64,000 bases of DNA from Trametes villosa. Taxonomy: Eukaryota; Basidiomycota; Agaricomycetes; Polyporales; Polyporaceae. Below are positions 34,370 to 49,579 of this stretch, in pieces; the first letter of the stretch is position 1, and each line of letters begins with the position of its first letter. The notes beneath the pieces were generated by a model, which made no database searches, was not told the DNA's origin, and saw only the letters and a list, made by a program, of their open reading frames with translations. Both the position numbers and the translations under genes were made by a program. Location of the stretch: assembly GCA_002964805.2 (NCBI GenBank), contig PUDQ02000001.1:9448001-9512000 (forward strand). The letters run 5' to 3'.

Positions 34370-35890
34370 ATGTCTGCGCCCACGCTCAAGCTCAACCCCC
34401 CATTCCGTGCCGAGCAGATCGGCTCCCTGAAGCGGCCGCAGAAGCTGCTCGAGAAGCGCAAGGAGTTCGAGGCGGGGAAGTGCACGCGGGAGGAGTTGCG
34501 CACGGTCGAGGATGAGTCGATCAAGCAGGTCATCGAGGTGCAGCGCGAGACGGGCATCAAGGGCATCACCGACGGCGAGTTCAGGAGGTGCGTTCGCCTT
34601 TACCTCTGTGTGGTGCACATGTAACAGGGCGCATAGGCACATGTTCTACGACGGCGTGTTCGACAACCTGGACGGCATGAAGCACGTCAAGCCGGTGCCC
34701 ATGCACATGCTCATGGACTACGTCCCGGACGTCGCCGCGTTCAAGGAGCACGACTTCAAGGGTGCGGACACCTACGTCTGCGTCGTACGTGCACGGTTGG
34801 CTTCTCTTCTCCCGGCGGAAGCTAACTGGCTGCGCAGAGTAAGCTCAAGCGGACGAAGCAGTTCTACGTGCCTCAGTTCGAGGCGCTCAAGGCTCTCACC
34901 GCGCCAGAGGTGCGCCACCTGATCCCATCTGCCGTCCCATCTTCTCATACACCGCGCAGGAACACAAGAATCTGAAGATCACGATGGCCGCGCCCGAGTG
35001 GTTCCACCTCCGGCACGGGGAGTACGCGTACCCGAAGGATGTCTACAAGAACGACGGTGCACGCCATTTTTCGCCCTCTCTCGCTGTATTCTGACATGAT
35101 ATGGTTGCACGGTAGACGAGTACTTCGCCGACATCGCCGTAGCGTACCAGGCGGAGCTCCAGGACCTGTACGCCGCCGGCTGCAGGAACATCCAGATTGA
35201 CGACCCACTGCTCGCGTACTTCTGCGCGGAGTCGATGATCAAGGGCATGGAGGAGCGCGGGATCGACCACGAGGCGCTGCTCGACACGTACATCAAGGCA
35301 TACAACGATTGCCTGAAGAACCGCCCCGCGGACATGAACGTCGGCCTGCACCTCTGCCGCGGCAACTTCCGCGTACTTTCCCCTTCCACTGTGTTCCTCA
35401 TGAAATATATCTAACGCGGTGCAGAGCGGGATGCACTTCAGCGAGGGCGGGTACGACCGCATCGCGATCAAGCTGTTCCAGGAGATCAACGTGGACTGCT
35501 ACTACCTCGAGTACGACACCCCGCGCGCGGGCACGTTCGAGCCGCTCAAGTTCCTCCCGCCGCACAAGGCGGTCGTGCTCGGGCTGATCTCGACAAAGTT
35601 CCCGCGCCTGGAGGACGTCGACGACCTCGTGCAGCGCGTGCGCAACGCCGCGACGGTCATCGCGGACGGCCAGGAGAAGCGCTCGGTGGAGGCCGCGCTC
35701 AACCAGTACGCCTTTCCTCCGACATTGATCGTATGCGTCAGGCTGACCATATCCGTCATTCAGGATCTGCATCAGCCCCCAGTGCGGCTTCGCGTCGCAC
35801 TCGGAAGGCAACCTCGTCGACGACCACGCGATGCGCGAGAAGCTCGCGCTCGTCACGCGCACCGCGCGTGCGATCTGGGGCGAGAACTAA
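34370..35890 (+). CDS. Cobalamin-independent methionine synthase-like methyltransferase (399 aa)
   Basis: Exons 34370-34587, 34637-34784, 34838-34909, 34960-35056, 35116-35372, 35425-35705 and 35764-35890 give 399 residues with no leftover bases. The protein belongs to the UROD/MetE-like barrel superfamily. The N-terminus has the FRAEQIGSLKRP signature of single-domain MetE-like proteins, followed by TDGEFRR. Zinc and thiol-binding residues of the MetE C-terminal domain appear as H257-L-C259 and a late cysteine in the CISPQCGF stretch (C360 or C365). Acidic residues follow in VDCYYLEYD. Full methionine synthase has two barrels and about 760 residues; this protein has only one, so it may transfer methyl or related groups to a thiol without the folate-binding N-terminal half. 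It is probably cytosolic. The exact substrate is not visible. Confidence 0.9.
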
Positions 35891-37141
35891 ACACGAAAAT
35901 CCGCGCTCTCACCGCGCGCGTCGCACTCTGGATGATCGCGACGACGGAGGAAGGTGGTGGTGGCGGGCTCAACGCCCGCCCGGCGCGCCCGCGGGTGCGG
36001 GCGCGCACGAGGGTATACGTGCGGACGTTTCTGCAGTGGGCACCACGGCCGGCGGGGCCCGCGCCGGTGCCGCCCACGGTGGCCTGATTCAACTCGATCC
36101 TGGGGGCATGCAGCGAAGTGTAACGTGTACGAATACTTGTACCAGTACTATACGGAGATGCCGATGACAAACCACATCCTTCCCATTGCTATAACCAGGA
36201 AAACCCTGGCTCTCGTCTCCCGGCTTTCGTTGCTCTCCGCCACTCGTCACTCTCGCTGCCGTCGGTCTCCCATCCACCTCTGTATCATGCTCCTTGCGCC
36301 CTTCTCTGGCTCTCACCATGATCCTACTCTTGCTTGCTGCTAACTTATCGCTCTCACTCGCCACTTGCCTCGGACCTTCAAAAACCACGTACTACAATGT
36401 TGCCAGCCCAGCACCTTAGTCGCCTGTAAGGCCTCGCGCTGCGGAGCCTCGCGCGCGATGTTACATCGCGTTACTACAAGCTCGCGCGCCACCTCCGGCT
36501 TCAGACATCCACAGAGAGCGGAATCGGCGGTCCGACAACCGGTGCCACGTGCGCGACGCGACGCGTTGTGCGCGTCGCGAGACGCGCTCGCCTCCTTCCT
36601 CCTCCCACCATAACTCTGTAGCGCCGCTGAGCGGCATCGCCCGCTACCTCGTCTTGGTACACAGTACAGGAAGAATCTATGCTACTGTATCCGCGGAAGC
36701 TACGTTCGCCTCCGGTAGGGCGAACCCGATAAGCCCCGCAGCCTTTCCGTAGATCGAGAGCGAACGGCGCGCTTCCAAGCCTGAGAGCTATTTGGAGCGG
36801 ACATCCCTTGACCCCCTTTACCCGTCGTTAAGGTCTTGATATGGCGCTTCACAGTGCGCCACATAAGCCTAGGGCTATCGGTAACAGTGTATTTCAAGTT
36901 GTGGGCACAGAGCAGCCGCCTCAGATCCGCGGACGAGAGGCGATCCACTACGGTTTCCTATATACGAATCTGGGATTCACCCGCGGTCAGTCGCGAATCT
37001 GGACGGGAGGGACCTTCGAGTGACGTATGGAAACGTTCACACGCAGGGCCGCACGCGTCCAGACTCCGACTGGGATCTACGAAGGCAGAGACAGGAAGTT
37101 CATCATAGGAAGCGCAGATCGTCAACGGCATGGTTGTAGAG
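35891..37141. other. Intergenic up to the Plavaka insertion point
   Basis: No gene recognised. It contains the probable 3' untranslated region of the methyltransferase gene, then short frames without known motifs. The last bases, just before 37147, are the left flank of the large transposon insertion. Confidence 0.4.
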
Positions 37142-37146
37142 GTGAA
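37142..37146 (+). repeat. Putative target duplication GTGAA, left copy
   Basis: GTGAA directly abuts the left terminal inverted repeat and recurs at 49333-49337 directly outside the right one. Five bases is short enough that chance cannot be excluded, and the exact end of the element could shift by a base. The paired position nevertheless supports an insertion boundary here. Confidence 0.6.
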
Positions 37147-37180
37147 CCCCAGCGAGAACGGCGCATTTCCGTGTATATCC
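37147..37180 (+). repeat. Left terminal inverted repeat of the Plavaka element
   Basis: These 34 bp match the reverse complement of 49299-49332 at 31 positions, including the uninterrupted last 15 bases, TTTCCGTGTATATCC. The outermost bases are CCCCAGCGAGAA on both sides. Confidence 0.8.
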
Positions 37181-37621
37181 ACACATATCTGGATCGTCTC
37201 CCCCTAAATAGATAGACACGGATATACGCGGATATTCAAACGGTCGTTTAGATATATGCTGTAGAGTTCTGCGTCGATCCACGTATATCTGCAGTGTTCT
37301 GCGCATTTTCGAGCAAAGGGGATATATACGGATATATACGGATACATCCTGGGCCCATGCTACTACTGGTATAAACCGGAAACCCCCGCGCGCGATCCCG
37401 GTCGTCCCCGCAGACCCGGGGGACGTCCGCGTAAGAGGTGCGAAGTCGTGACCGTGCGTCCGAGGCCCTGTGCGAGGCGCGCACGGCCGCGCGAGACTTG
37501 GGATGTTGCGGGCGCGTCGCAGGAGGTTGGACTAGGCTGAACAGAGATAGACGACGCCAGCCAGAGGAGGGAGACGAGTCGAGGGAGACGAGACAGGACG
37601 GGTAGAGACAGGACAGCCGTA
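37181..37621. repeat. Left subterminal region of Plavaka with repeated ATATA/CGGATA motifs
   Basis: AT-rich in contrast to its surroundings. Several short copies of CGGATATA and its complement occur (around 37215, 37230, 37262 and 37318-37350), including a near-tandem run of ATACGGATAT units. Such subterminal motifs are typical binding sites for CACTA-like transposases. No coding sequence is seen. Confidence 0.55.
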
Positions 37622-39572
37622 TCACGGGCAGCGGAGATCGAGACAGCGCAGACTGAGATCAAGTAAAGACAGTAGAAAGCCGGCGTCGAGCAGGCAGAGC
37701 GGCGAGAGGAACCAGACGACGGCCTGAGATGCTAGCCAGTGCCTAGCGGGCCGTAAACGAACACGCTTAAGGCGGAGGGGAGTCGCCCCGCGCGCCGTCC
37801 GTGGCCGCGTACATCTAAGCATCGCATCAGTGTGTGACCGTGGGCTCGTCTGGCGAAAGGAGCAACGATGCTTACCTGGCGGCGGTAGGGATTTTTGGTC
37901 TTGTACCAAGCGTCGAACTCGGCGCGCTTCCCTTCGGGGTTCTTGCGCGCCCAGATCCTGGCGCAAATATCCCTAGAGGGAGAGTGGTCAGTAAACACGA
38001 TGTGGATGCCAGGTGTGACGCACTTGGGCTTGCGGTGGTCCTCGTCGTCCACGGGAGGCCAGGGAGTACTCGGACCTACCGGACGCGGCTTCGGCTTGGC
38101 CCTCTTGGGTTTCTCAGTCACCACAGGAGCAGTAGCAGACGGCGGTGCGGTGGTTGCGGGCACTGTGGAGGCGGCGGCAGACGAGGTGGTGGGCTGGGGA
38201 ATGGAGGCAGGCTCGGGCTGTGGGGAGCCAGTCGACGTGGGCGCGGTGGCGTTGGCCGCGGGACGGCACGACGGGGGCGGTGCTGGCGGCGCGGTCTTCC
38301 AAGAGAGGTTCGCGCTGGATAACATGGTGTCAGCCTGGGAGATATCATGTAGACTTGTCACTCACAGAGGGTTCCGGAACGTTACCTGCCATTCACAGAG
38401 GTCAGTATGGACGTCTACAACGAGCATTTATGCACATACGATGGCGGGTGTGGGAGGCTCCTCGTGTCCGTCTTGCGGCTCCTCTTGTGATGCAGCGGGT
38501 GGGCCAGTAACTGCGGGGGAGGGCGGACTAGTAGCAGCGGGTGGCCCGGTCGACACAGGAGAATTGTCGCGGTAGGAGAGAGACGTCGAGGTGGGGCTGA
38601 TGGGGGTCGTGGGTTGAGTCAGAGAAGGGGCGGGCGAGAGGGAGCCTGTGCGCGCCCGCTTATTGGGCAGCTCCTCGGTGTCGGAGTCAGCGAGCTCACG
38701 ATGGCCGGGTAAGCCCGGACCGTCGCCGTCTGCAACTTCGTCCTCCGGAGAGGGCGACATCCGGAAAGGTGCGTCGGCGAGTGCCTTACCGACGTTAGCG
38801 GCACCTGCGAGATCTTGCTCCTGATCGATATCGTCCTTGTTCTTCACATAGACTACAAAGAGTTCAGTATATGCGCATACACCGGGTCAGGCTACGTATA
38901 AGCGCACCAACGGCCTTCCCTTTGTTCTTCTTGGCGAGCTTCTTGTAGGCCTTGGCCTTCGCCGCAAGCCGTGCCAGGCGGGCCTCGTACTTTTTCTTCC
39001 ACTGGGAGTAGTTGGCTTTGATAGCCACCTTGTCGGCCTTCCAGTTGTCTTCACAGAGCTGGAGTTCGAAGCACTGAGACCGCATCCAGTGGTGGTACTC
39101 GAGGGCGATCTGAGCATCGATGCCCTGTTGCCAAGTCGCCGGTGCACGCTTGTTCCGGTGAAGGTAGACACAGAACTCCCGGAAGCGACGGCAGATCGTG
39201 CCCGCGCGGTGCCCGCCGACGACGTTGCCCTCGGCATCAGTGATGAATGTGAATACGACGTTCTCATCGTTAGCCATGCGCGTGGGCCCTTTTTGACCCT
39301 TTTCGTCTCCGGGCGCGGTGCTCTCCGCTGTGTTCGGCTTCCATTCGCATCGGCGCCAGTGGGGGACCTAGCACAATGAGTACGTCGGTGCCCTGTCACA
39401 AGTGAGGATGCATACGCACTTTGGGGAAGTGCTCGCGTGAGCGCGGCTTGTCGATGTACCACCCGTTCGCGTCAACCTCCGGCACATAACGATCCGAGGG
39501 CTCGGCCGCGCTGCCGCTGCCAAGCCGTCGCGCTCAATCACCAAAAATGGCCGAACGGGCGCATACACTCAC

Positions 39573-39584
39573 CGTGTCAAGTTC
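39573..39584 (-). other. 12-nt microexon in the Plavaka-borne gene
   Basis: The minus strand reads CAG, then GAACTTGACACG, then GTGAGT, flanked by introns of about 57 and 62 nt. Including it is what makes the phases of the neighbouring exons fit (phase 2 in, phase 2 out). Skipping it would also keep the frame, so it could be alternatively used. Confidence 0.55.
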
Positions 39585-39695
39585 CTGTCGGACGCCGGTG
39601 AGCCGAAACCTTGGTGCACGATCCGAGATGGCTAGACTCACCTGAGATAGGTCATCTGCAGCTGGAGGGCCTGCATTTGTTGCTCCGCCCATATG

Positions 39696-39703
39696 TCTGG
39701 GAC
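39696..39703 (+). repeat. hAT target-site duplication, left copy (TCTGGGAC)
   Basis: TCTGGGAC directly precedes the left hAT end and recurs exactly at 43568-43575, directly after the right end. Eight bases is the target duplication length of the hAT superfamily. Confidence 0.95.
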
Positions 39704-39721
39704 TAGTGCACACCAGGGGTA
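39704..39721 (+). repeat. hAT left terminal inverted repeat
   Basis: 18 bp, identical to the reverse complement of 43550-43567. Confidence 0.95.
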
Positions 39722-39815
39722 GGGGTACCCCCAGGGGTTTTGCCAGGGGTATGTAAGGGGTGGGGGTAAGGGTACAGGCACACATACCCTCCAAGACCCT
39801 CAATACCCTTAGCCA
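39715..39815 (+). repeat. hAT left subterminal AGGGGTA/ATACCCT repeats
   Basis: Many direct and inverted copies of AGGGGTA, AGGGTA and their complements occur over about 100 bp, mirrored by the block at 43410-43550. They are probable transposase binding sites. The resemblance to telomere repeats is superficial. Confidence 0.6.
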
Positions 39816-40028
39816 AATTCATTGAAAAGCGATAATTTATTAGTTAAAGCACCCGGGCAGCCCTCTGGCACTCTCTAAGGCCACATCAGCCATCAGAAAG
39901 GTGTAACTGTACAGTTTATACCATAAGAGGTATGTTGTAGCTTACATGATCACCACAACATAGCGCTGAAGCGCCCAAGAACGCCGACACACAGTCCATA
40001 GACCCGGGAGCACACTCTACATCATCAC

Positions 40029-43000
40029 ATGGCCGGACTACAGAAGATTGCAGACACTCTCAAGCGCCAGGCATCCCGCCTATCGAACAAGAGCAAAAAG
40101 GGCAAGCGGATCCGAGTGGACAGCCCTTCCGGGGATTCCGAAGACTCGGATCCCTCCCCATCCCTATCTGGCAGCCGAAGTCCATCAGTCGAAGAGGTAC
40201 CTGATGAGGACGAGGTCGAGATCGTCCAGAAGAAGACACAAGACGAGGAGGATCAGGACCTAATCAGTGAGTGAATGATTGGCAAGTACTCACCGGAGGG
40301 AGGGCCGGCACTAAGCGGACACGTGTAGCCCGACTGCGCGAGTCCTGGAACTCGCCGGTGTACGCGTTCTACGCGCCGGACGTCTATATCGAGCGCAGGA
40401 AGGGGCGGACGGCGATTGTCTTCACGTGCGCGGGGCCAAAGTGCGGCACGCTCGTGCGCCGGTACCTTGACACGAAGGACTCGACGTCCACAAGTAACCT
40501 GCGAACACACGTCAAAATTTGTAAGCGCTGGGGTGAGGGTGTGCTTACCGAGGCATGTAAGTACAAGACAGCCGACGAGGCGCGCCCCGTCACCGAGGCC
40601 TACCAGCGGACGGGGACGATCACGTCCATCTTCAAGCGGTTGGGCAAGGGGCGGCTAAAGTTCTCGACACGTCAGTTCACGCCGCACGAAACACGGTGAG
40701 TCACTCACCTATTCATGGGCGGGGGTGCCTGCTAACGTACACGCGCCAGCGCGGAGATCGTTCGTTGGGTCTGCGAGAACAAACGCCCGTTCGCGATCGT
40801 ACGCGATCGCGGGTTCTTGACGTTGATGAAGACGGGGCGACCGGAGTACCCGATCCCCTCGCCGTCGACTGTTGCGCGCGACGTGAAGCGCGTCTTCGCG
40901 CGCGTCCGGTGCCGTCTCGCGGCCATGCTACAGGTAGCGTCAATCAGTACCTCGACAGTTGGAGCCGCACTGATGCACTCACTAGAGCTACGACGGTGAT
41001 CTGAGTTTCACCGTCGATGCTTGGACATCGCCCAATCATAAGGCTCTGGTGGCCTTCGGCGTCCATCTTCAACAGAGCGGGACGCCCCTGTGCTTCCTGC
41101 TGGATGTCGTCGAGGTTGCGCAATCGCATACCGGTCGCGCGCTTGCGGAGGCGTTCGTGGACGTCCTGCGCGAGTTCGGAATTGAGAACAAGGTCAGTAA
41201 CGGTACGAGGCGCATGAGAGGTTACTTACCAGTCGAACAGCTGCTTGCCGTGACGGCCGACAACGCTGCCCCGAACGACACCATGCTCGAGGTGATGGGC
41301 GAGCTCCTTGATGACTTCGCAGGCGAGGCGAGTCGTGGGCGCTGCTTTGACCACGTAGTCAACTTGTGCGCGAAGTCCGTTCTGCGGCCGTTCGACGTCG
41401 CCCCGAAGAAGGTCGAGGCGACCATGGAAGAGGCTGAGCGAGCGCTGCACGAGCTTGCTGAGGGGCTCGAGCTCGATGGGGATGGCGAGGTAGCGGGTGA
41501 GGAGGAGGAGGGGGGAGGAATAGACGATCTTGATGGGTATGTGGATGAGTACGCAGCGCTGGACGCGATCGAGCGGGAGGAGCTCGATCGCAACATCTAC
41601 CCTGTGAAGAAAGTGCTACTGAAGGTGAGTGGGCTCGCGCAAGCAGCAGGCAGTGAACTCACCGGCTATGGGGCGTGCAGCTCCGAAAACTCGCGCATTC
41701 CGTCATGAACTCCTCGACCATCCTCCTGCCTGCGTGGTACACCCTCCTCGACGACCTTGTCCTACCGCGCAAGGCGATTCCGCGCGACGTTCGAACGCGA
41801 TGGAATTCCACTTATCGGATGCTTGCGTTTGCTCTTGAATACCGAGAGGCCGTCGACCAGATGACGTCCGACAGGAAGATCGGGTTGAGGAAGCTCGAGC
41901 TGGATGAGGAGGAGTGGGACATTTGCCAGCAGTTGCACGATGTGCTCAAGGTGCGTCCGCGAACTGTGACTGTGATGTTAGGTAAGCGGTTGCGCGTGCC
42001 GTTGCAGCAGACTGGCGCTGCGGTAGGTCACAGTGACGGACACGGTCACTCGATGTCACCACCTCGAGCTCGCTCCTCGTCGCCACCGCCTCGCGCTCGT
42101 CGCCACCGCCTCGCGCTCGTCGCCACCGCCTCGCGCTCGTCGCCACCGCCTCGCGCTCGCTCCTCGTCGCCACCTCCTTGCGTGCGCTCCTCGTCGCCAC
42201 CTCCTCGCGCGCGCCGCTCAGCGGCGGCGCCACCTCGCGCTCGCTTCTTGTCGCCGCCGCTCTCGCGCTCGCTTCTCGTCACTGCCGCTCGCGCGCTCGT
42301 TCGTCTTCGTGCCTCTGGCTTACAGCTACCCCTACCCCGCCTAGATCTTCTATGACGCTACTCAGTTCTTCTCGCGCCAAGGGCACCCGAACCTGAGTAG
42401 CGTCATCCCAGCGATGGACCGGATCGATGAGGCCCTAGCCAGCGACGGTGTGAACCTCCAGTACCGCCCGTCGGTGCGCGTCGCGGCGGCCCTCGGCAAG
42501 AAGACGTTGAATAAGTATTACAAGTCGACCGATGATAGTGAGCTGTACCGCATCGCCATGAGTAGGTCTGCATTGCATCAGGTCGCCCGCAATATACTGA
42601 TTCATTTATTCCCTCTCTAGTTCTGCATCCTTCCCACAAGCTCGAGTACTTCCGGGACCACAACTGGTCCGCCGCGTGGATCGACACCGCCGAGGGGATC
42701 GTTCGCGACGAGTTCGACCGCAAGTACGCTGCGCGCAAGCGGGCAACACCGCGCGACTCCGACGCGAACGCGAACGCGAACGCGGATTCTCAGGTGCGCG
42801 TCTCCAATCTTTCTCCCCCGCGTCTTGTACTGACTTCACACGCGTTCAGCCATCAAAAAACCTCTTCGACAACCTCCCACGGCGCAGCGGGAAGAAGAAA
42901 GCTCCCGGGCCCGTCAAGACCGAGCTTGACCTGTACCTCGAAGCGGACACCGAAGAGGTCGACGACGTCATCGCCTGGTGGTGGCAACGTCGCGATGTGT

Positions 43001-43337
43001 ATCCGAACTTATCACGCATGGCTTTAGATTACCTTTCCATTCCTGGTGAGTCCTGCGCCGCGCTGTACACGCCCGCTTTATGCTGACCCTGGGCCTCCAC
43101 TTAGGTACCTCCGTGGACATCGAACGCGCGTTCAGCCGCGGCCGGATCATCCTCCCGCATCTCCGCAACGGGCTCTCCGCCAATTCAATTCGGGCGATCT
43201 TATGCCTCGGTGAGTGGAGCCTCCTCAACCTGGTGAAGGATGAGGACATCACGGCAGAGGTCAAGATGCCTGGGGTTGATGGAGAGGAGGATGTAGAGCT
43301 TGAAGATGGCTGGGACAGCATTGTATTGCCTGTGTAG
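40029..43337 (+). CDS. hAT transposase (BED finger, DDE domain, C-terminal dimerisation domain; 822 aa)
   Basis: Catalyses cut-and-paste movement of the hAT element in the nucleus. Ten exons, 40029-40266, 40329-40695, 40750-40933, 40986-41192, 41241-41624, 41681-41950, 42345-42561, 42621-42793, 42850-43045 and 43105-43337, total exactly 823 codons with the stop. The N-terminus has basic and acidic serine-rich segments. A BED-type zinc finger uses C113, C118, H140 and C144. The RNase-H-like catalytic acids fit D274 (FTVDAW), D339 (TADNAAPND) and E752 (VDIERAFS). The IPRDVRTRWNSTY block and LHPSHKLEYF are hallmark hAT motifs. The hAT dimerisation domain covers roughly residues 700-795 and includes WWWQRRDVYPNLSRMALDYL. 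No stop or frameshift is seen, so the enzyme may be active. Confidence 0.94.
42060..42180 (+). repeat. 20-bp minisatellite in hAT intron 6
   Basis: Several head-to-tail copies of a unit close to CGCGCTCGTCGCCACCGCCT lie in the 394-nt intron 41951-42344, and related, more variable units continue to about 42290. This intron is six to eight times longer than the others in the gene, so the array probably caused its growth. The open frames seen across it on both strands are repeat artefacts. Confidence 0.7.
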
Positions 43338-43409
43338 TACCTGTACCTATGACAATCATTTGCTCTCAACACTGCTTCTGCCTTTAGGAGCGCTTTTTTG
43401 ACTAGTTCT

Positions 43410-43549
43410 GTGCCAGGGGTATCAAGGGTACCTAAATACCCTTCACCCCTTGATATACCCTCAATACCCTGCTGACCCTACACCCTTGAGCGGAGGGTGG
43501 GGGTTCTGAAGGGTAAGGGTAAGGGTGTCAGCTCCGGAGTATGAGGGTA
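43410..43549 (+). repeat. hAT right subterminal AAGGGTA/ATACCCT repeats
   Basis: Dense copies of GGGTA-type motifs in both orientations, including a tandem AAGGGTAAGGGTAAGGGT run, lie between the transposase stop and the right terminal repeat. Confidence 0.6.
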
Positions 43550-43567
43550 TACCCCTGGTGTGCACTA
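43550..43567 (-). repeat. hAT right terminal inverted repeat
   Basis: 18 bp, the exact reverse complement of 39704-39721, followed at once by the second TCTGGGAC. Confidence 0.95.
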
Positions 43568-43575
43568 TCTGGGAC
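43568..43575 (+). repeat. hAT target-site duplication, right copy (TCTGGGAC)
   Basis: Exact repeat of 39696-39703. Both copies lie in the reading frame of the interrupted Plavaka-borne gene. Confidence 0.95.
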
Positions 43576-44136
43576 TATCCCTGGAGGGAAGCCTGGTGTA
43601 GGTGGGCGTGCATTGATCCCACCCGGGGCCTGCAGGTAAAATGATATCAATGTAAGTATCCCACAATGTAGACCTCAAGTGAATGGGCAGACCGGCATCG
43701 TAGTCGGGCCCCCGAAGCCGAGCAGAGGCCCGCCAGCGCTGAGAAAACCTGGCATGGCTAGGCCCAGATGGCCGCCTTGCGAAGACGAAGTCCAAGGCTG
43801 CGGGCGTCCGGGAATCTGGCTCGAGGCGCCAGGCACAGTGCCCGGAACCCAATTTTCTTGGCCGTCGTTGGCGACTGTTCCCCCGAGATCTGCGGGTAAC
43901 ATCGGCGATGCTGAGCCAGACCCACCTGAGGTGGGCGAGAAGATTTGCATGCCGAGATGGGGTTGCATATTGTGAGGACGTGAGTGTATGCGACGGTCAG
44001 AGAGGGATGGTAGTGGCTCGAGACAAAAGAGGAATTTTTCTGGAGGGGCGACGTATACCTTCGCGGGAAATGCCGTGCCGTTTTAGGTCGCATACAGGCT
44101 GCTCTCCGTCCTGGACCATCTCCAGCCATCCTCGCC

Positions 44137-45066
44137 ATGTCTACCTACCACCAGGCACTACTCTCGGCATGTATGCTGTCTACCAAGAAGTTCTCCATGA
44201 TGAAAACACCCCACGGCACTCTCGCCATCCGTCTACTTGACTTGGCGGCACTCTCTTGCACTCTGGCTTGCGATCACGCCGAGATTGCCTCGCCCGACCC
44301 CCAGCAACTTCGCGAGGATCAGGCACGCCTCGTGGCTGCCCTGACGGCTGTCATTGACGCCATGCAGGCACCGGCCTCCTCACACCAGGGGGCGTGGGAT
44401 GTCTCAACTGAACTCATCAAGACACCTGCACATCTCAGCGCAGCAGCAATGGGCACTCTCGTAGAGGCCCTTGTCCCACGCCTACACCAGCCCGTTCAAG
44501 ACGCCATTGTCTCGACTATCATCCCTGCTCTGGCCGAACCTCTGACAGACGAGCTGCGCGACTGGATGCTAGATGATCTCGAGGGCCAACTGCTTCAGCG
44601 ACTGCGAGGCCCACTCCTGGAGCGTCTCCTGCCCGAGCTTCGCATGGATATAGCAAGACTAGCGGAGTCCACCGTGGACGCGCAGGCGCGCCCGTCATCT
44701 CCGGAGATCTCGCCTGGCCAGGATACCTCCGCGGCCGCCTGGGCGGCTCTCGGACCATCCCCTCCCGCCGACTATGAGTCATCCCCAAGTTCCCCGGCAC
44801 CCTACTTGGCCTCCGACCCGCCTGTGGCCCCCACGACTGAGCTATCTGCGGCGCGCGTGGCGCTCTCCCCTGCTGCTTGTGATGCTACCTCTCCTCCTTG
44901 CAAGAGGTCGCCGTCGCCCGCGCTCGAGTACCTTCCCCTCTCGGTTCCCCCGGCTGCGCGCTCCGCTCCAAGCCGCGCTGCTCAAGCGCGTTCGTTCAGG
45001 CCGCCCGTCCCAAAGAGACGTCGCACGCGCACCATCGTTGAGTCGGACGCAGAGGATTCGGGGTAG
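44137..45066 (+). CDS. Uncharacterised Plavaka-borne protein (309 aa)
   Basis: A single open frame without introns, transcribed divergently from the interrupted 642-residue gene (168 bp between the starts) and converging on the transposase gene (131 bp between the stops). The N-terminal half is Leu/Ala-rich and helical, with heptad-like leucines (residues about 110-185). The C-terminal half is Pro/Ser-rich, and the end carries a basic cluster, KRRRTRT (a likely nuclear signal), followed by an acidic tail. I do not recognise a family. Its location between the element's other genes suggests an accessory factor in transposition. A host gene captured by the element is the alternative. An upstream intron or a different start cannot be excluded. 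Confidence 0.6.
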   Translation: MSTYHQALLSACMLSTKKFSMMKTPHGTLAIRLLDLAALSCTLACDHAEIASPDPQQLREDQARLVAALTAVIDAMQAPASSHQGAWDVSTELIKTPAHLSAAAMGTLVEALVPRLHQPVQDAIVSTIIPALAEPLTDELRDWMLDDLEGQLLQRLRGPLLERLLPELRMDIARLAESTVDAQARPSSPEISPGQDTSAAAWAALGPSPPADYESSPSSPAPYLASDPPVAPTTELSAARVALSPAACDATSPPCKRSPSPALEYLPLSVPPAARSAPSRAAQARSFRPPVPKRRRTRTIVESDAEDSG

Positions 45067-45197
45067 AGAGTACTCGGTGTCTCGCGAGACATAGCAGGCG
45101 TGGCGGCTGAGGCAGACGGAAGGCATTCGGATTCGATTGGAGCTTAGACATACTTGTACAATGTATCCGAACTCTGTGTAATGCTATTCTGATTCAC

Positions 45198-48100
45198 CTA
45201 CTCGTCGTCGAGATCGTCCTCGCGCCCTTGGATCGGCTCCGGCTCGCGACCTCCAAGCAGTGCGACATCGAGGCCCGGTTTCTCCACAACAAAGAAGCGA
45301 CGCCCGTAGAGCTCGGCGGCCTGTGGCTGGGCGGCCTCGGCTGCCGTCGTGGGCAGAGGAACCATGGCGACGACAGCGGAGATGTCAGCGATGTCGACGG
45401 CTTCGCGGGCATCCTCGCCAAGGTACTTGCACGCGAGGACCGTGTTCTCCGACTCTTCCAGGATGCCGGCATCGGGCGGGGAGAAGGGGGAGATCATAGC
45501 GAGAGGGCGTTCGTCCCCCGCCACACGGAGGAGGAAGTAATACTGTACTTCTGCGAAGCGGCTGGGCTCGCCGGCGAGCTGCATCACATGTGAGTAAATC
45601 GGTGCTGTGACAATGGTATATTGTGCACCTTCACCATGCGCGCCCGTCGCGGTGTGCGCCCACGCATCTCGAGGGCACACTCCTTCCAGGCAGTGCGCGC
45701 GATTTGCCCGTTCGGCAGGCGGAGACGAGCCCATCGCCGCACGAGTGGAGTCCAGTCGGGGGCCGGTGCACCCGCGCGCGCCAGGTAGGCATGGATGGCC
45801 GCGCCTTCTGCGGCAGTGACAGTGCGCGAGGTTGAGTCAAACGCGCGGAGGAGGACATAGCCTCCGTCTAACTCCCGGGCCCCGTGCGGAAGGCCTGGCT
45901 CCTCCGCGAATGCCGGAATCATGGCCTTCAGCGCATTCACCTGCGTGCGGCGGAGTGCGCGTTCCGACACGTTCGCGTACGGAGTGCTGTGCTGTTTGAT
46001 CTCCCGCGTGATGTTTCCGATGTAGTTTTCAAGGGTCCATTGGGTGTAGAGAGTTCCGGGGCCACGGCGGTAGACCTCGTCGACGATGTGGATGGTTGCG
46101 TGGAGACTGTGACGGCAGATGTGAAGGCGTTCGCGGCGGCGGTCGACATAGAGAGTCTCGACCGCTTCAGCGTGTTCGACGAAGTTGGTGTGTGCCTCGA
46201 CGAGCTGGGCAGCGGGCAGGCGGCGCTGGAGGATAATGCGCACTCCGCGAACAAGCTTGCAGAAAGGCTGGTAGTAGACTGGGCGCTGGATGCCGCGAAG
46301 GAGGCCGGGTAGGAGGCCGTAAACGTACAGTAGGTATTCCCAGGCCTTGTAGCCACTGTTGATCTTCTCGGCGGGGTTCCTGGGAGGGCGATCGAAAGAA
46401 CCGGGGAGGCAATGCGTCGCCCCCGCAACGAGCTGGCCGTGCGCTTCCCAGAGGTCCTTGTCCATGAGCACAGCCCAGTCCCAAGTCTCTTTGCTGTCGG
46501 GCGGGTCGCACGTGAGGGAACCGCGGAGTAGGCCCAGTACGAGGTCGGTGAGGTTGAGGGAGATGAGGTGCATCAGATCTGCGCCGAAGACGTCGGGAAC
46601 CCCCAAGATCCGTGGGATGCCGCTGAAAATACTCGGCTTGGCGATGCCCGTGCGAAGCCGGTTGCGGGCGTAGACGGCGTTGTTCGCTGACGATTCGACC
46701 GCACGCAGGTTCTCCTCATAGCGCGCACGGGTCTGCGCGGCGGTCTCGGTGTTCTGAGCGCGGAGGGAGACGTCGGGGTGATCGGAGTCGAGGGGCGGTT
46801 GCGGCTGTAGCGCTGCAGGATAATACATGGGCCCTCCGATTTTGTTTCGCCCCCGGAGAGGGCAGTATAATCGGCAGCCGTGCGCACCTTGGTGACCGAC
46901 GAGGCCGTTGAGATAGGCCATGGCCGGCCCATCTGCTGTGGCCAGCAAGAGGTAAACGTGCGACTTGAACAGACGGTCTTCAGCAGCGTCCCACACTTCG
47001 AGTCCGTCGCGTTGGAGGGCGGCGAGGTGATAGAGGCCCGGGTAGATGAAGGAGTCGATGTTCTTGGGTTTCTTCGGACCGCCGATAACCGCACCCGGGA
47101 GGACGAAGCGCTTCTTGTAGCGCGAATCCGGGGGCAGGTCGAAGAGGACCCAGACAGTGAACCAGCAGTCAGATGTCTTGGACTCGTAAAGCTGAGCACC
47201 GTCAATAGAAAACATAAGTACCATATCCTCGTCCTTGATAGCCTTCTGCCTCTCCTTCTCCTGGACGGCCGCGAGGTACGCCTCCCCGTAGTAAACATCG
47301 TCATAGTCGGGAGTGGTATTCGGAGCACGCGCGGCGGCGTCCAAGATGCGGCGAGTCTCCCGAGCGCGATGCTTCATCAGCGTGGCAGTGGCAGGCGAGG
47401 ACCACAGGGCCTGGAGCTGGGGCCCAAGCGGGTAAGTCTGGAAGGTCCGTCGGGCGACTTGCTTGCCTTGGGCGAGCCTCCAGATGTCGTACCGGGACTC
47501 CCCACAAAACGGACACTGCTCGTAGACGGCGAAAGGGCCGACGTACGCGAGGCAGGTGTTGATGCACATGTCTGTGTGGATCGAGTCGATCCCGGTGACG
47601 TTGCTCGCGAGCCGCTTGACCTGGTCGTACGTCGGGATTTCGTCCTTAGCGAGCTCGACGAACGCCTTGCGATTGTCCGCGTAGTTCTCCTCGGACGCGT
47701 CGCCGCGCGCACAGAACATGCGCAATCCGGCGCGTTCCTGTGGGGTCAGGCTGGCAGCGGGGGCGCGCGGCGGATTGGTCATGCGAGCGAGGGTCTCCGT
47801 GCTCAGGCCAGAGCCCTTGAGAGTCGCGGTCTGCAGACCGCGTATGAATGCGTGGGTCTCGCGGACTTCCTTGCGACGGCTCTCGACAGGAGCGCCGACG
47901 TCCTCTGTATAGCCGTATTCGGGGTCGGGTGGGGGAGTGTCGGGGCGTGGGTCATCTCCCTCGTCATCGGCGTTGGGCGGGTGGAACACAATGTCCGCGT
48001 CGAGACCTGGCGGAGGAGAAACAGAGCCTCTCGGAGATGCAAGCGGGAGGTCGGGGTGCGCAGGCAGCTCCTCGACGCCGTTGTCCTCGTCCGACGTGTC

Positions 48101-48504
48101 CTCGTCATCCGACGTGTCCTCGTCCGACGTGTCCTCATCCGACGTGTCCATGTCAACGTCGTCCTAGATGTGACACCATCAGGTCCGGCCATAGTGCATG
48201 ACCATCTGAATGAACTCACTTCGATAGCTCCGTGCTGGGCGACATTCGCTTGGTGGACGAGCCCCGGAAGGCCGGCGGCGCGAGGGAGAATGGGCTGCAG
48301 CCCCTGGAGGACGTCCTCGGGACGAACTCGGTAGGGCGCGTGAGCGTCGTACCGACGCTTGCTAACCCTGCGCAGGATGCCCTTGCAACGCTGCATGCAA
48401 TTGCATTTCCAAGGCGGCCCAGCGGGTGCGGGATTGAGGTGAATGGGGAGCGCAGGGAGAGAGTGTTCGCGGCGAGGGAGAACAGGCGGGTTGGCTCCCT
48501 GCAT
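45198..48504 (-). CDS. Plavaka transposase (1066 aa)
   Basis: Minus-strand exons are 48504-48220, 48163-45629 and 45578-45198, all joining in phase 0, for 1067 codons with the stop. The N-terminus carries the small Cys/His cluster of this family (C34, C36, C40, H55) followed by RVRPEDVLQGL. An acidic linker of DTSDED repeats follows. A second zinc-binding site appears as CINTC and CPFC (C295, C299, C312, C315). The catalytic core includes FSIDGAQLY (D416) and GVPDVFGADLMHLISLNL. The C-terminus has NGQIARTAWKE and FAEVQYYFL, both typical of Plavaka proteins. The 50-nt second intron removes an apparent frame change near 45600. No stop interrupts the gene, so this copy may be functional. Codes for cut-and-paste transposition in the nucleus. 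Confidence 0.9.
48032..48163 (-). repeat. 15-bp tandem repeats coding for the DTSDED acidic linker
   Basis: Five to six copies of a GACACGTCGGATGAG-like unit at the start of transposase exon 2 code for repeated Asp-Thr-Ser-Asp-Glu. Repeat number is likely to vary between copies of the element. Confidence 0.6.
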
Positions 48505-49298
48505 GATGAAGTAGGGAGGGCGAGCGAGGCAGTTGGGTGAGGAATAGGCTGCATTGCGCGGTGACCTTATATACATGTGTATCTACAGGAGAAAGACGCG
48601 CGAGACTGTACCTGTGATGTTGCGGCTCCATCCTAATGTATGGGCCCTTGGTGTGGGCGGAGAGGCTTGTGTTCTTGAGGGCGCCCCAGAGCGCATCCGT
48701 GTCGTGCCGTGAGGCACCCGAGAACGGCACAAGCTGCGGGGTGTGTCCCATGTCAGCTTCAAGACGAGTGCATGAGCCTGGTGTGACGTTCTGACCTGGC
48801 TCGGGCGGAGAGGCTCGCGTTCTCGTAGTATCTCGACTGCGATTGCGCAGTGCCGCCGAGCAGCGTGATATCGGCTCCGGGTGCACTGCAACAAAGATGT
48901 CAGCTTCAGGCTGCGAAGGGTATTCGCAGCTGGCGCGTACCTGCACAGAAGGCCTGTGCCATACAGTACTAGAGCATCCGTGCGTTCAGCTGAGGAGCGC
49001 GATACCGGCAGGGTGCCTTGCTGGCAGGCCGCTTGCCAGATGTGCGGCCGTGGCGGGAGTCGGCAGGGAGCGCGTGCGGGTGCGCGGCGGCGCTGCCAGT
49101 GGCGGTGGACAGCAGATCGTCGAGTATCGTCAGCAATAGCAAGCTCGTTAGAAAGGGCGAGGACGTCGACAGAATTGTCGAAGAGCAAGTCGGTTGACAT
49201 CGATTTGCTGTCAGCAAACTGTCGACCTCCAGTAAAAAGGCGCCCAAGATCGCGGGGAAGCTGTGCCTAGATCACTCCGGATAGATTTGGAAAGCTAC
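48505..49298. other. Right subterminal region of Plavaka, transposase promoter side
   Basis: It includes a TATA-like box (48566-48573) and a minus-strand open frame starting at 49200 (MSTDLLFDNSV...) that reads plausibly for about 40 codons before becoming low-complexity. It could be an upstream exon of the transposase transcript or a small unrelated frame. I do not call it as a gene. Confidence 0.4.
48566..48573 (-). promoter_or_regulatory. TATA-like box of the Plavaka transposase gene
   Basis: The minus strand reads TATATAAG about 62 bp upstream of the start at 48504. The spacing is the same as for C2H2 paralogue 1. Confidence 0.5.
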
Positions 49299-49332
49299 GG
49301 ATATACACGGAAAGGCGCGATTCTCGCTGGGG
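49299..49332 (-). repeat. Right terminal inverted repeat of the Plavaka element
   Basis: On the minus strand it reads CCCCAGCGAGAA and onward, matching 37147-37180 at 31 of 34 positions. Confidence 0.8.
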
Positions 49333-49337
49333 GTGAA
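49333..49337 (+). repeat. Putative target duplication GTGAA, right copy
   Basis: Direct repeat of 37142-37146, immediately outside the right terminal repeat. Confidence 0.6.
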
Positions 49338-49579
49338 CGAGAACGCGACACAGAGAGCGCGAAAAGGAGAGTGCGCTGGTATTACTCGGAGTCGTAGACA
49401 AGACGCCGATGCAGCACGTGACCTTGACAAATTCCCACGGGGGGAGTCGATCGTTCACAAAGACCCACTACCTCTCGGTAGCGGGAATCACTGCCAGGCT
49501 AGTTTCTGCGATCAGCCTTGTGAACATCTCGCGACTCTGCTTGCTTACCTGTGTCCCCCTGCAGCTCGTTTCTCTTGCC

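What the first reader, a model, noticed from the sequence alone, without database searches (positions are those of the whole stretch)
39696..43575. Intact hAT element caught inside a coding exon of another transposon
An 18-bp perfect inverted repeat, a perfect 8-bp duplication (TCTGGGAC) and a ten-exon transposase with all catalytic residues sit in exon 2 of a gene carried by the Plavaka element. Removing the hAT and one duplication restores the reading frame exactly, so the event order is certain: Plavaka first, hAT later. The element looks complete and recent.
Basis: seen in the sequence. Interest (0 to 1): 0.75.

Follow-up and report, generated by a model that had tools for sequence, protein, structure and literature searches.

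The report
Jumping gene nested inside another
In the genome of a bracket fungus close to Trametes versicolor, an intact hAT transposon has jumped fairly recently into a gene carried by a larger transposon, which had itself jumped into a repeat; untouched copies of both target sites elsewhere in the genome fix the order of events, and the larger transposon is not the kind first named and leaves an unusual seven-base footprint.

Summary
The hAT at 39704-43567 has 18/18 inverted repeats, an 8/8 duplication (TCTGGGAC) and a ten-exon model of an 822-aa transposase. The order of events is shown by a second copy of the host element (contig C16), which has a single TCTGGGAC and no hAT. None of the 3 other complete host copies found carries the hAT (C16 read in full, two judged by length), so it is not a fixed composite. 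One interpretation fails: the host element is not Plavaka. Pfam's Plavaka model finds 144 matches in this genome, none here. The host transposase is Transposase_21 (Tnp2) with a RAG1-like predicted fold, its ends are CCCAGCGAGAA..., and it makes 7-bp duplications (4 of 4 complete copies). The host has its own empty site too: a second copy of the ~690-bp repeat it entered has one GGTGAAC and is 1.0% diverged, so the host insertion, and the later hAT insertion, are fairly young. The hAT is an ordinary new member of a known kind. The host element is the more interesting part: a 2025 survey (passages read) puts its group's duplications at 2-5 bp.

The parts
36608..37147 (.). left part of outer repeat X (about 690 bp) into which the host element inserted; ends with the 7-bp duplication
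   Evidence: 98.7% identical to C1:486268-486807
37141..37147 (.). 7-bp target duplication GGTGAAC, left copy
37148..49331 (-). host element: Transposase_21 (Tnp2) DNA transposon, 8312 bp without the hAT and one TCTGGGAC, termini CCCAGCGAGAA...TTCTCGCTGGG
   Evidence: ends shared with C16:57453-65707 and two further complete copies
39642..39703 (-). 3' half of exon 2 of the host element's accessory gene (interrupted; exon model)
   Evidence: frame continues across the joined flanks; same exon intact in C16
39696..39703 (.). 8-bp target duplication TCTGGGAC, left copy
   Evidence: single copy at C16:59988-59995
39704..43567 (+). complete hAT element, 3864 bp
39704..39721 (+). left TIR TAGTGCACACCAGGGGTA
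39704..39953 (.). left subterminal zone rich in GGGTA/TACCC (8 in 250 bp)
40029..43337 (+). hAT transposase, 822 aa, exon model 40029-40266, 40329-40695, 40750-40933, 40986-41192, 41241-41624, 41681-41950, 42345-42561, 42621-42793, 42850-43045, 43105-43337
43318..43567 (.). right subterminal zone rich in GGGTA/TACCC (9 in 250 bp)
43550..43567 (-). right TIR
43568..43575 (.). 8-bp target duplication TCTGGGAC, right copy
43576..43629 (-). 5' half of exon 2 of the accessory gene (exon model)
43693..43968 (-). exon 1 of the accessory gene (model; start codon not tested)
44140..45066 (+). second accessory ORF of the host element, conserved in C16
   Evidence: dN/dS 0.16 between the two copies
45584..48163 (-). 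main ORF of the host Transposase_21 transposase (859 aa), open
   Evidence: PF02992 E 3.3e-13; C16 copy frameshifted; predicted fold resembles RAG1
49332..49338 (.). 7-bp target duplication GGTGAAC, right copy
49332..49488 (.). right part of outer repeat X
   Evidence: 100% identical to C1:486801-486957

Best explanation
This is a three-level nest made by two cut-and-paste insertions. First (shown), a Transposase_21 (Tnp2) transposon with CCCAGCGAGAA ends entered a roughly 690-bp repeat, duplicating 7 bp (GGTGAAC). Later (shown), a complete, autonomous-looking hAT entered exon 2 of a minus-strand accessory gene of that transposon, duplicating 8 bp (TCTGGGAC). Inferred by analogy with Hermes: the hAT protein cuts at its TIRs, probably guided by the GGGTA-rich subterminal zones, and joins the ends to target DNA with an 8-bp stagger. 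Inferred: the insertion disables the accessory gene while the main host transposase ORF stays open.
For: hAT empty site: the left flank matches C16:58007-59995 and the right flank C16:59988-61984, overlapping by exactly the 8 bp, read directly. C16 is a separate insertion, not an allele: similarity stops at the host element's ends and its own duplication is TCTAAAG. Host empty site: C1:486801-486807 has one GGTGAAC between the two flanks of repeat X. hAT identity: PF05699 E 8.9e-17; Hermes by sequence E 9.6e-13; a model of the 80%-identical T. versicolor homologue has 12 PDB matches with E <= 0.001, all Hermes. D274, D339, C367/H370, W501 and E752 are located; of these one search aligns D274 (in a weak stretch), W501 and E752 with Hermes, and the roles of D339 and C367/H370 are assigned from recall. 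GGGTA/TACCC: 17 in the outer 500 bp against a mean of 0.9 (maximum 6) in 5000 base shuffles, and 5 in the inner 3364 bp.
Against: No second copy of this hAT was found, so its own mobility is not shown; only a related family has two copies with different duplications. No transcript data support the splice models. No Pfam BED finger was called. The second D (D337 in the homologue's numbering) is not among the columns conserved in 90% or more of 18 aligned relatives, some of which are partial. The window's own hAT protein was not folded, only its homologue.
Confidence: 0.95

Rival explanations
1. The hAT is a fixed part of a composite element that moves as one unit.
For: It lies wholly inside the host element's ends.
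Against: 0 of 3 other complete host copies carry it: C16 is read in full; C1:3991687-4000140 and C10:688634-697157 are 8454 and 8524 bp, too short to hold an 8.3-kb element plus 3.9 kb (site itself not read).
Confidence: 0.01
2. C16 is the allele or haplotig of the window copy, so the empty site is a polymorphism at one locus.
For: Blocks of 99% identity at both ends.
Against: Outside the element ends the flanks do not match and the 7-bp duplications differ (GGTGAAC against TCTAAAG); overall identity is 93.2%.
Confidence: 0.01
3. C16 once carried the hAT and lost it by exact excision.
For: hAT elements excise (recalled).
Against: hAT excision usually leaves a footprint (recalled); C16 has the clean single 8-mer.
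Confidence: 0.03
4. The host element is a Plavaka that happens to escape the Pfam model.
For: Plavaka and EnSpm transposases show recognizable similarity (PMC12730594, passages).
Against: No PF18759 match listed at E <= 10 while the same model gives 144 matches elsewhere. An element with PF18759 matches on C76 has CATCAG..CTGATG ends and a TA duplication; the window element has CCCAGCG ends and 7 bp.
Confidence: 0.03
5. The host element's duplication is really 2-3 bp (the TNA core) and the rest of the 7 bp is target preference.
For: The 7-mers share T at position 3 (7 of 8) and A at position 5 (8 of 8).
Against: All 7 bases are duplicated in 4 of 4 complete copies with four different sequences, and the empty site holds exactly one 7-mer.
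Confidence: 0.02

Closest known systems
Hermes and other hAT superfamily elements
   Same: 8-bp duplication, short TIRs, C-terminal Dimer_Tnp_hAT domain, Hermes-like predicted fold (of the homologue)
   Different: 16-18% identity to Hermes in the structure alignments; fungal lineage with a ten-exon gene model
hypothetical protein VTO73DRAFT_13915 of Trametes versicolor (P0001)
   Same: 80% identical over the full length
   Different: a neighbouring host gene is 95% identical to T. versicolor, so the hAT is more diverged than that one gene; no sign of recent transfer
Plavaka
   Same: both belong to the wider EnSpm/RAG1-related group by the literature (PMC12730594) and the fold match
   Different: Pfam model absent; PlavakaA TGT..ACA, 2 bp; PlavakaB CATCA..TGATG, 2-3 bp (PMC12730594, passages read)
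TRC / CACTA elements with Transposase_21 (SmTRC1, PMC1636069, passages read)
   Same: Transposase_21 domain; TIRs beginning CCC, as in the three animal TRC elements described there
   Different: those have 2-bp direct repeats (7 of 14 SmTRC1 copies); this one 7 bp. That paper could not define the ends of TRC elements outside three animals
Kyakuja (KDZ)
   Same: 7-bp duplications are reported (PMC12730594, passages read)
   Different: Kyakuja has CA..TG termini and no TIRs; no KDZ-type family was listed for the host protein at E <= 10
CNIRT6 and CNEST, CMC elements of Cryptococcus (PMC12810828, passages read)
   Same: fungal CMC-type transposases
   Different: 3-bp and 2-bp (TA) duplications, ends CACTG and CACGG

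Membership tests
hAT superfamily (inner element) | 8-bp target duplication | tested here: met
   TCTGGGAC both sides, single at the C16 empty site
hAT superfamily (inner element) | short terminal inverted repeats | tested here: met
   18/18
hAT superfamily (inner element) | C-terminal Dimer_Tnp_hAT domain | tested here: met
   PF05699 E 8.9e-17, 61.1 bits against cut-off 21.4
hAT superfamily (inner element) | Hermes-like fold with D-D-E and CxxH | tested here: met
   12 of 12 PDB matches with E <= 0.001 are Hermes (model of the 80%-identical homologue); residues located, roles partly recalled
hAT superfamily (inner element) | N-terminal BED zinc finger | tested here: inconclusive
   no Pfam BED match at E <= 1; Cys/His residues visible in the translation
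hAT superfamily (inner element) | transposition activity | not testable with these tools
   single copy only
Plavaka (host element) | Plavaka transposase domain PF18759 | tested here: not met
   not listed at E <= 10; 144 matches elsewhere in the genome, none at this locus
Plavaka (host element) | termini TGT..ACA or CATCA..TGATG | tested here: not met
   CCCAGCG..CGCTGGG
Plavaka (host element) | 2-3 bp target duplication | tested here: not met
   7 bp in 4 of 4 complete copies and at the empty site
EnSpm/CACTA and wider CMC(T) group (host element) | Transposase_21 / RAG1-like catalytic domain | tested here: met
   PF02992 E 3.3e-13; 35 of 35 PDB matches with E <= 0.001 are RAG1 chains, Transib next at E 0.009
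EnSpm/CACTA and wider CMC(T) group (host element) | C(2)C and H(3-4)H between second D and last E | tested here: inconclusive
   D411, C430, H688, H692, E712 invariant and C434 at 90% or more in 32 sequences: H(3)H met, cysteines spaced C(3)C. Which residues are catalytic is my reading, not tested
EnSpm/CACTA and wider CMC(T) group (host element) | 5'-CA..TG-3' termini (in most cases) | tested here: not met
   CCC..GGG
EnSpm/CACTA and wider CMC(T) group (host element) | 2-5 bp target duplication | tested here: not met
   7 bp
Kyakuja/KDZ (host element) | KDZ transposase domain; no TIRs | tested here: not met
   no such family listed at E <= 10 (that Pfam holds a KDZ model is recalled); inverted ends of 33 bp at 91% (C16 left end against window right end)

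The most novel reading that the evidence does not exclude
The host element belongs to a fungal lineage of Transposase_21 transposons with a RAG1-like fold that makes staggered cuts 7 bp apart, prefers nnTnAnn targets and ends in CCCAGCG, outside the 2-5 bp range reported for this whole group; the hAT insertion has knocked out its accessory gene in one copy while the transposase ORF stays open.
Probability: 0.7. Interest if true: 0.5.

Novelty: new variant of a known kind. Interest (0 to 1): 0.4.

Why it matters
The hAT alone is a routine nested insertion (a new member of a known kind), though unusually well documented: both insertion events have their unoccupied target in the same genome, which gives a relative clock without a second species. 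The host element matters more and is the reason for 'new variant'. Duplication length reflects how the transposase spaces its two strand transfers, and the RAG1-related group is described as making 2-5 bp duplications (PMC12730594, passages); a Transposase_21 protein that makes 7 bp would show that the spacing is freer than thought, and the four copies here make that directly testable.

Tried and rejected
Plavaka identity of the host: rejected (and the C76 control). Kyakuja identity: rejected (inverted ends present). Fixed composite, allele/haplotig and 2-3 bp duplication readings: rejected. Horizontal transfer of the hAT between this fungus and T. versicolor: not supported, since the hAT is 80% identical and a neighbouring MetE-like gene 95%. 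This rests on one host gene.

Other copies or short deletion derivatives of this hAT: the TIR pattern with up to 3 mismatches gave 29 places against 9 for the reversed pattern; the only exact ones are the two ends of this element. The DNA search gave 9 matches: itself and 8 pieces of 80-177 bp at 69-76%. The protein search (114 matches, 55 of 168 candidates scored, so a lower bound) gave no other locus above 70% identity in the rows listed.

Dating from perfect TIRs and duplication alone was dropped as too weak; the outer repeat gives the better bound. It assumes no gene conversion between the two copies of repeat X.

Literature: nine searches were made; seven of them bear on a 7-bp duplication in a Transposase_21/CACTA/CMC element and their listings showed none. 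The library holds open-licence papers only, listings show titles and abstracts, and Repbase entries were not searchable, so this is weak evidence of absence. Of PMC12730594, PMC9674265, PMC1636069, PMC12810828 and PMC4455052 I read found passages, not whole texts; the others were seen as listings only.

Left undone: no transposase tree was built; the ends of other Transposase_21 elements in the genome (41 PF02992 matches) were not examined for duplication length.

Full report
What is there. The window is C1:9448001-9512000 of a 46.7-Mb assembly in 140 contigs. A MetE-like host gene at about 34370-35890 is 95% identical to one of Trametes versicolor, so the organism is probably a close relative (inference from one gene). 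At 39704-43567 lies a 3864-bp element with 18/18 inverted repeats, flanked by TCTGGGAC on both sides. Ten exons give an 822-aa protein without stops. Pfam finds Dimer_Tnp_hAT (E 8.9e-17), and the sequence matches Hermes chains (best E 9.6e-13). An AlphaFold model of the 80%-identical T. versicolor protein (mean pLDDT 74.7) gives 12 PDB matches with E <= 0.001, all Hermes. The outer 250 bp at each end hold 17 GGGTA/TACCC words together, against a mean of 0.9 in base shuffles and 5 in the 3364-bp interior, like the subterminal binding sites of other hATs (analogy, recalled).

The insertion site. The flanks belong to a minus-strand gene. With the element and one duplication left out in a script, exon 2 reads through in frame. 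A second copy of the host element on C16 shows this naturally: the left flank matches up to C16:59995 and the right flank from C16:59988, and the sequence has one TCTGGGAC and no hAT. Exons 1 and 2 are open in both copies, with 9 synonymous and 7 non-synonymous differences over 101.3 and 288.7 sites, so the gene looks constrained (dN/dS about 0.26, my arithmetic on two copies). Exon numbering is a model without RNA support.

The host element is not Plavaka. Its 859-aa ORF (45584-48163, minus) matches PF02992 Transposase_21 at E 3.3e-13; besides that only DUF1258 (below its cut-off) is listed at E <= 10, neither PF18759 nor a KDZ family. The Plavaka model gives 144 matches in the same genome (123 of 138 candidates scored), none at this locus, whereas PF02992 finds this locus over its cut-off among 41 matches. 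A protein search gave 240 homologues; of the 120 listed, every one with a precomputed Pfam domain has PF02992. The model of the ORF (mean pLDDT 77.3) matches RAG1 in 35 of 35 PDB hits with E <= 0.001, with Transib next at E 0.009.

Ends and duplications of the host. A pattern of its end (up to 3 mismatches) gave 13 places, with 0 for the reversed control. Eight pair into four complete copies and five are single ends. The four copies are flanked by GGTGAAC (window), TCTAAAG (C16), CTTGACG (C1:3991687-4000140) and GCTGAGC (C10:688634-697157), each 7 bp. Over eight 7-mers, four of them from single ends where duplication is not shown, and with the C124 end dropped because it repeats C23's 7-mer, T is at position 3 in 7 and A at position 5 in 8. 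The host's own empty site exists: the outer flanks match C1:486268-486807 and C1:486801-486957, overlapping by one GGTGAAC.

Order and age. Repeat X, then the host element, then the hAT. The two copies of repeat X differ at 7 of about 690 sites, so the host insertion happened after the two copies of X parted, at most about 1.0% divergence ago, and the hAT came later still. This assumes no gene conversion. The window and C16 host copies are 93.2% identical overall, from 76% to 99.7% by 300-column block, so their lineages parted long before the window insertion and they look mosaic.

An in-genome control. A related hAT family has two copies 99.2-99.7% identical in the stretches compared, with different 8-bp duplications (AACCCTTG on C107, CGAACGGG on C76). 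The C76 copy is split by an element with CATCAG..CTGATG ends and a TA duplication (read with those ends; the alignment overlap is 3 bases) and with PF18759 matches inside it. This agrees with the PlavakaB description in PMC12730594 (passages). So an element with the Plavaka domain in this genome looks quite different from the window's host element.

Results against. No second copy of the window's hAT was found, so a donor and present mobility are unshown. The C1 and C10 host copies were judged free of the hAT by length only. The second catalytic D is not among the columns conserved in 90% or more of 18 relatives. No BED finger was called. The cysteine pair of the host transposase is spaced C(3)C, not the C(2)C described for the group (PMC12730594). 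The claim that 7 bp is new for this group rests on one survey's stated range (PMC12730594: 2 to 5 bp), reports of 2 and 3 bp for Cryptococcus CMC elements (PMC12810828) and seven literature searches in an incomplete library. 7-bp duplications as such are known in fungal Kyakuja and hAT7 elements (PMC12730594).

Verdict. The finding is real and its event order is shown by empty sites; the hAT is an ordinary new member of its superfamily. The host element was misnamed, and its 7-bp duplication is the point a specialist would want to follow.

Noticed in passing
   Followed up: yes
window 45584-48163 and C16:57453-65707: Different defects in two host copies: the window copy has an open transposase ORF and a hAT in the accessory gene; the C16 copy has accessory exons 1-2 open and a frameshift in the transposase.
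   Followed up: partly
window 44905-45798: Sharp valley of 76-84% identity between the window and C16 host copies, against 89-99.7% in the other blocks; dS 1.15 over 45198-45584. Suggests recombination between element variants.
   Followed up: no
window 36608-37147 and 49332-49488; C1:486268-486957: A roughly 690-bp repeat of unknown class, 1.0% diverged between two copies, is the target of the host element.
   Followed up: partly
window 41951-42344: The sixth hAT intron in the model is 394 bp and holds a 20-bp tandem repeat (4.2 perfect copies at 42076-42159), while the other eight are 48-62 bp.
   Followed up: no
C3:2179067-2182765 and C23:9098-12796: A related hAT region is 100% identical over 2879 bp on two contigs, the match ending at one side inside the loci.
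   Followed up: no
C124:11696-11760 and C23:36120-36190: On C124 what looks like a host-type right end (one base different) is followed by TATAAGG and then a left end; the same 7-mer follows the C23 end.
   Followed up: no
C44:47386, 59667, 71635: TIR-like sequence repeated about every 12 kb; two of the three places compared are 97.6% identical over 3 kb. Probably an unrelated tandem array.
   Followed up: no
C77:82203-92200: A pair of TIR-like ends with 393-bp inverted arms at 96% and no matching 8-bp duplication.
   Followed up: no
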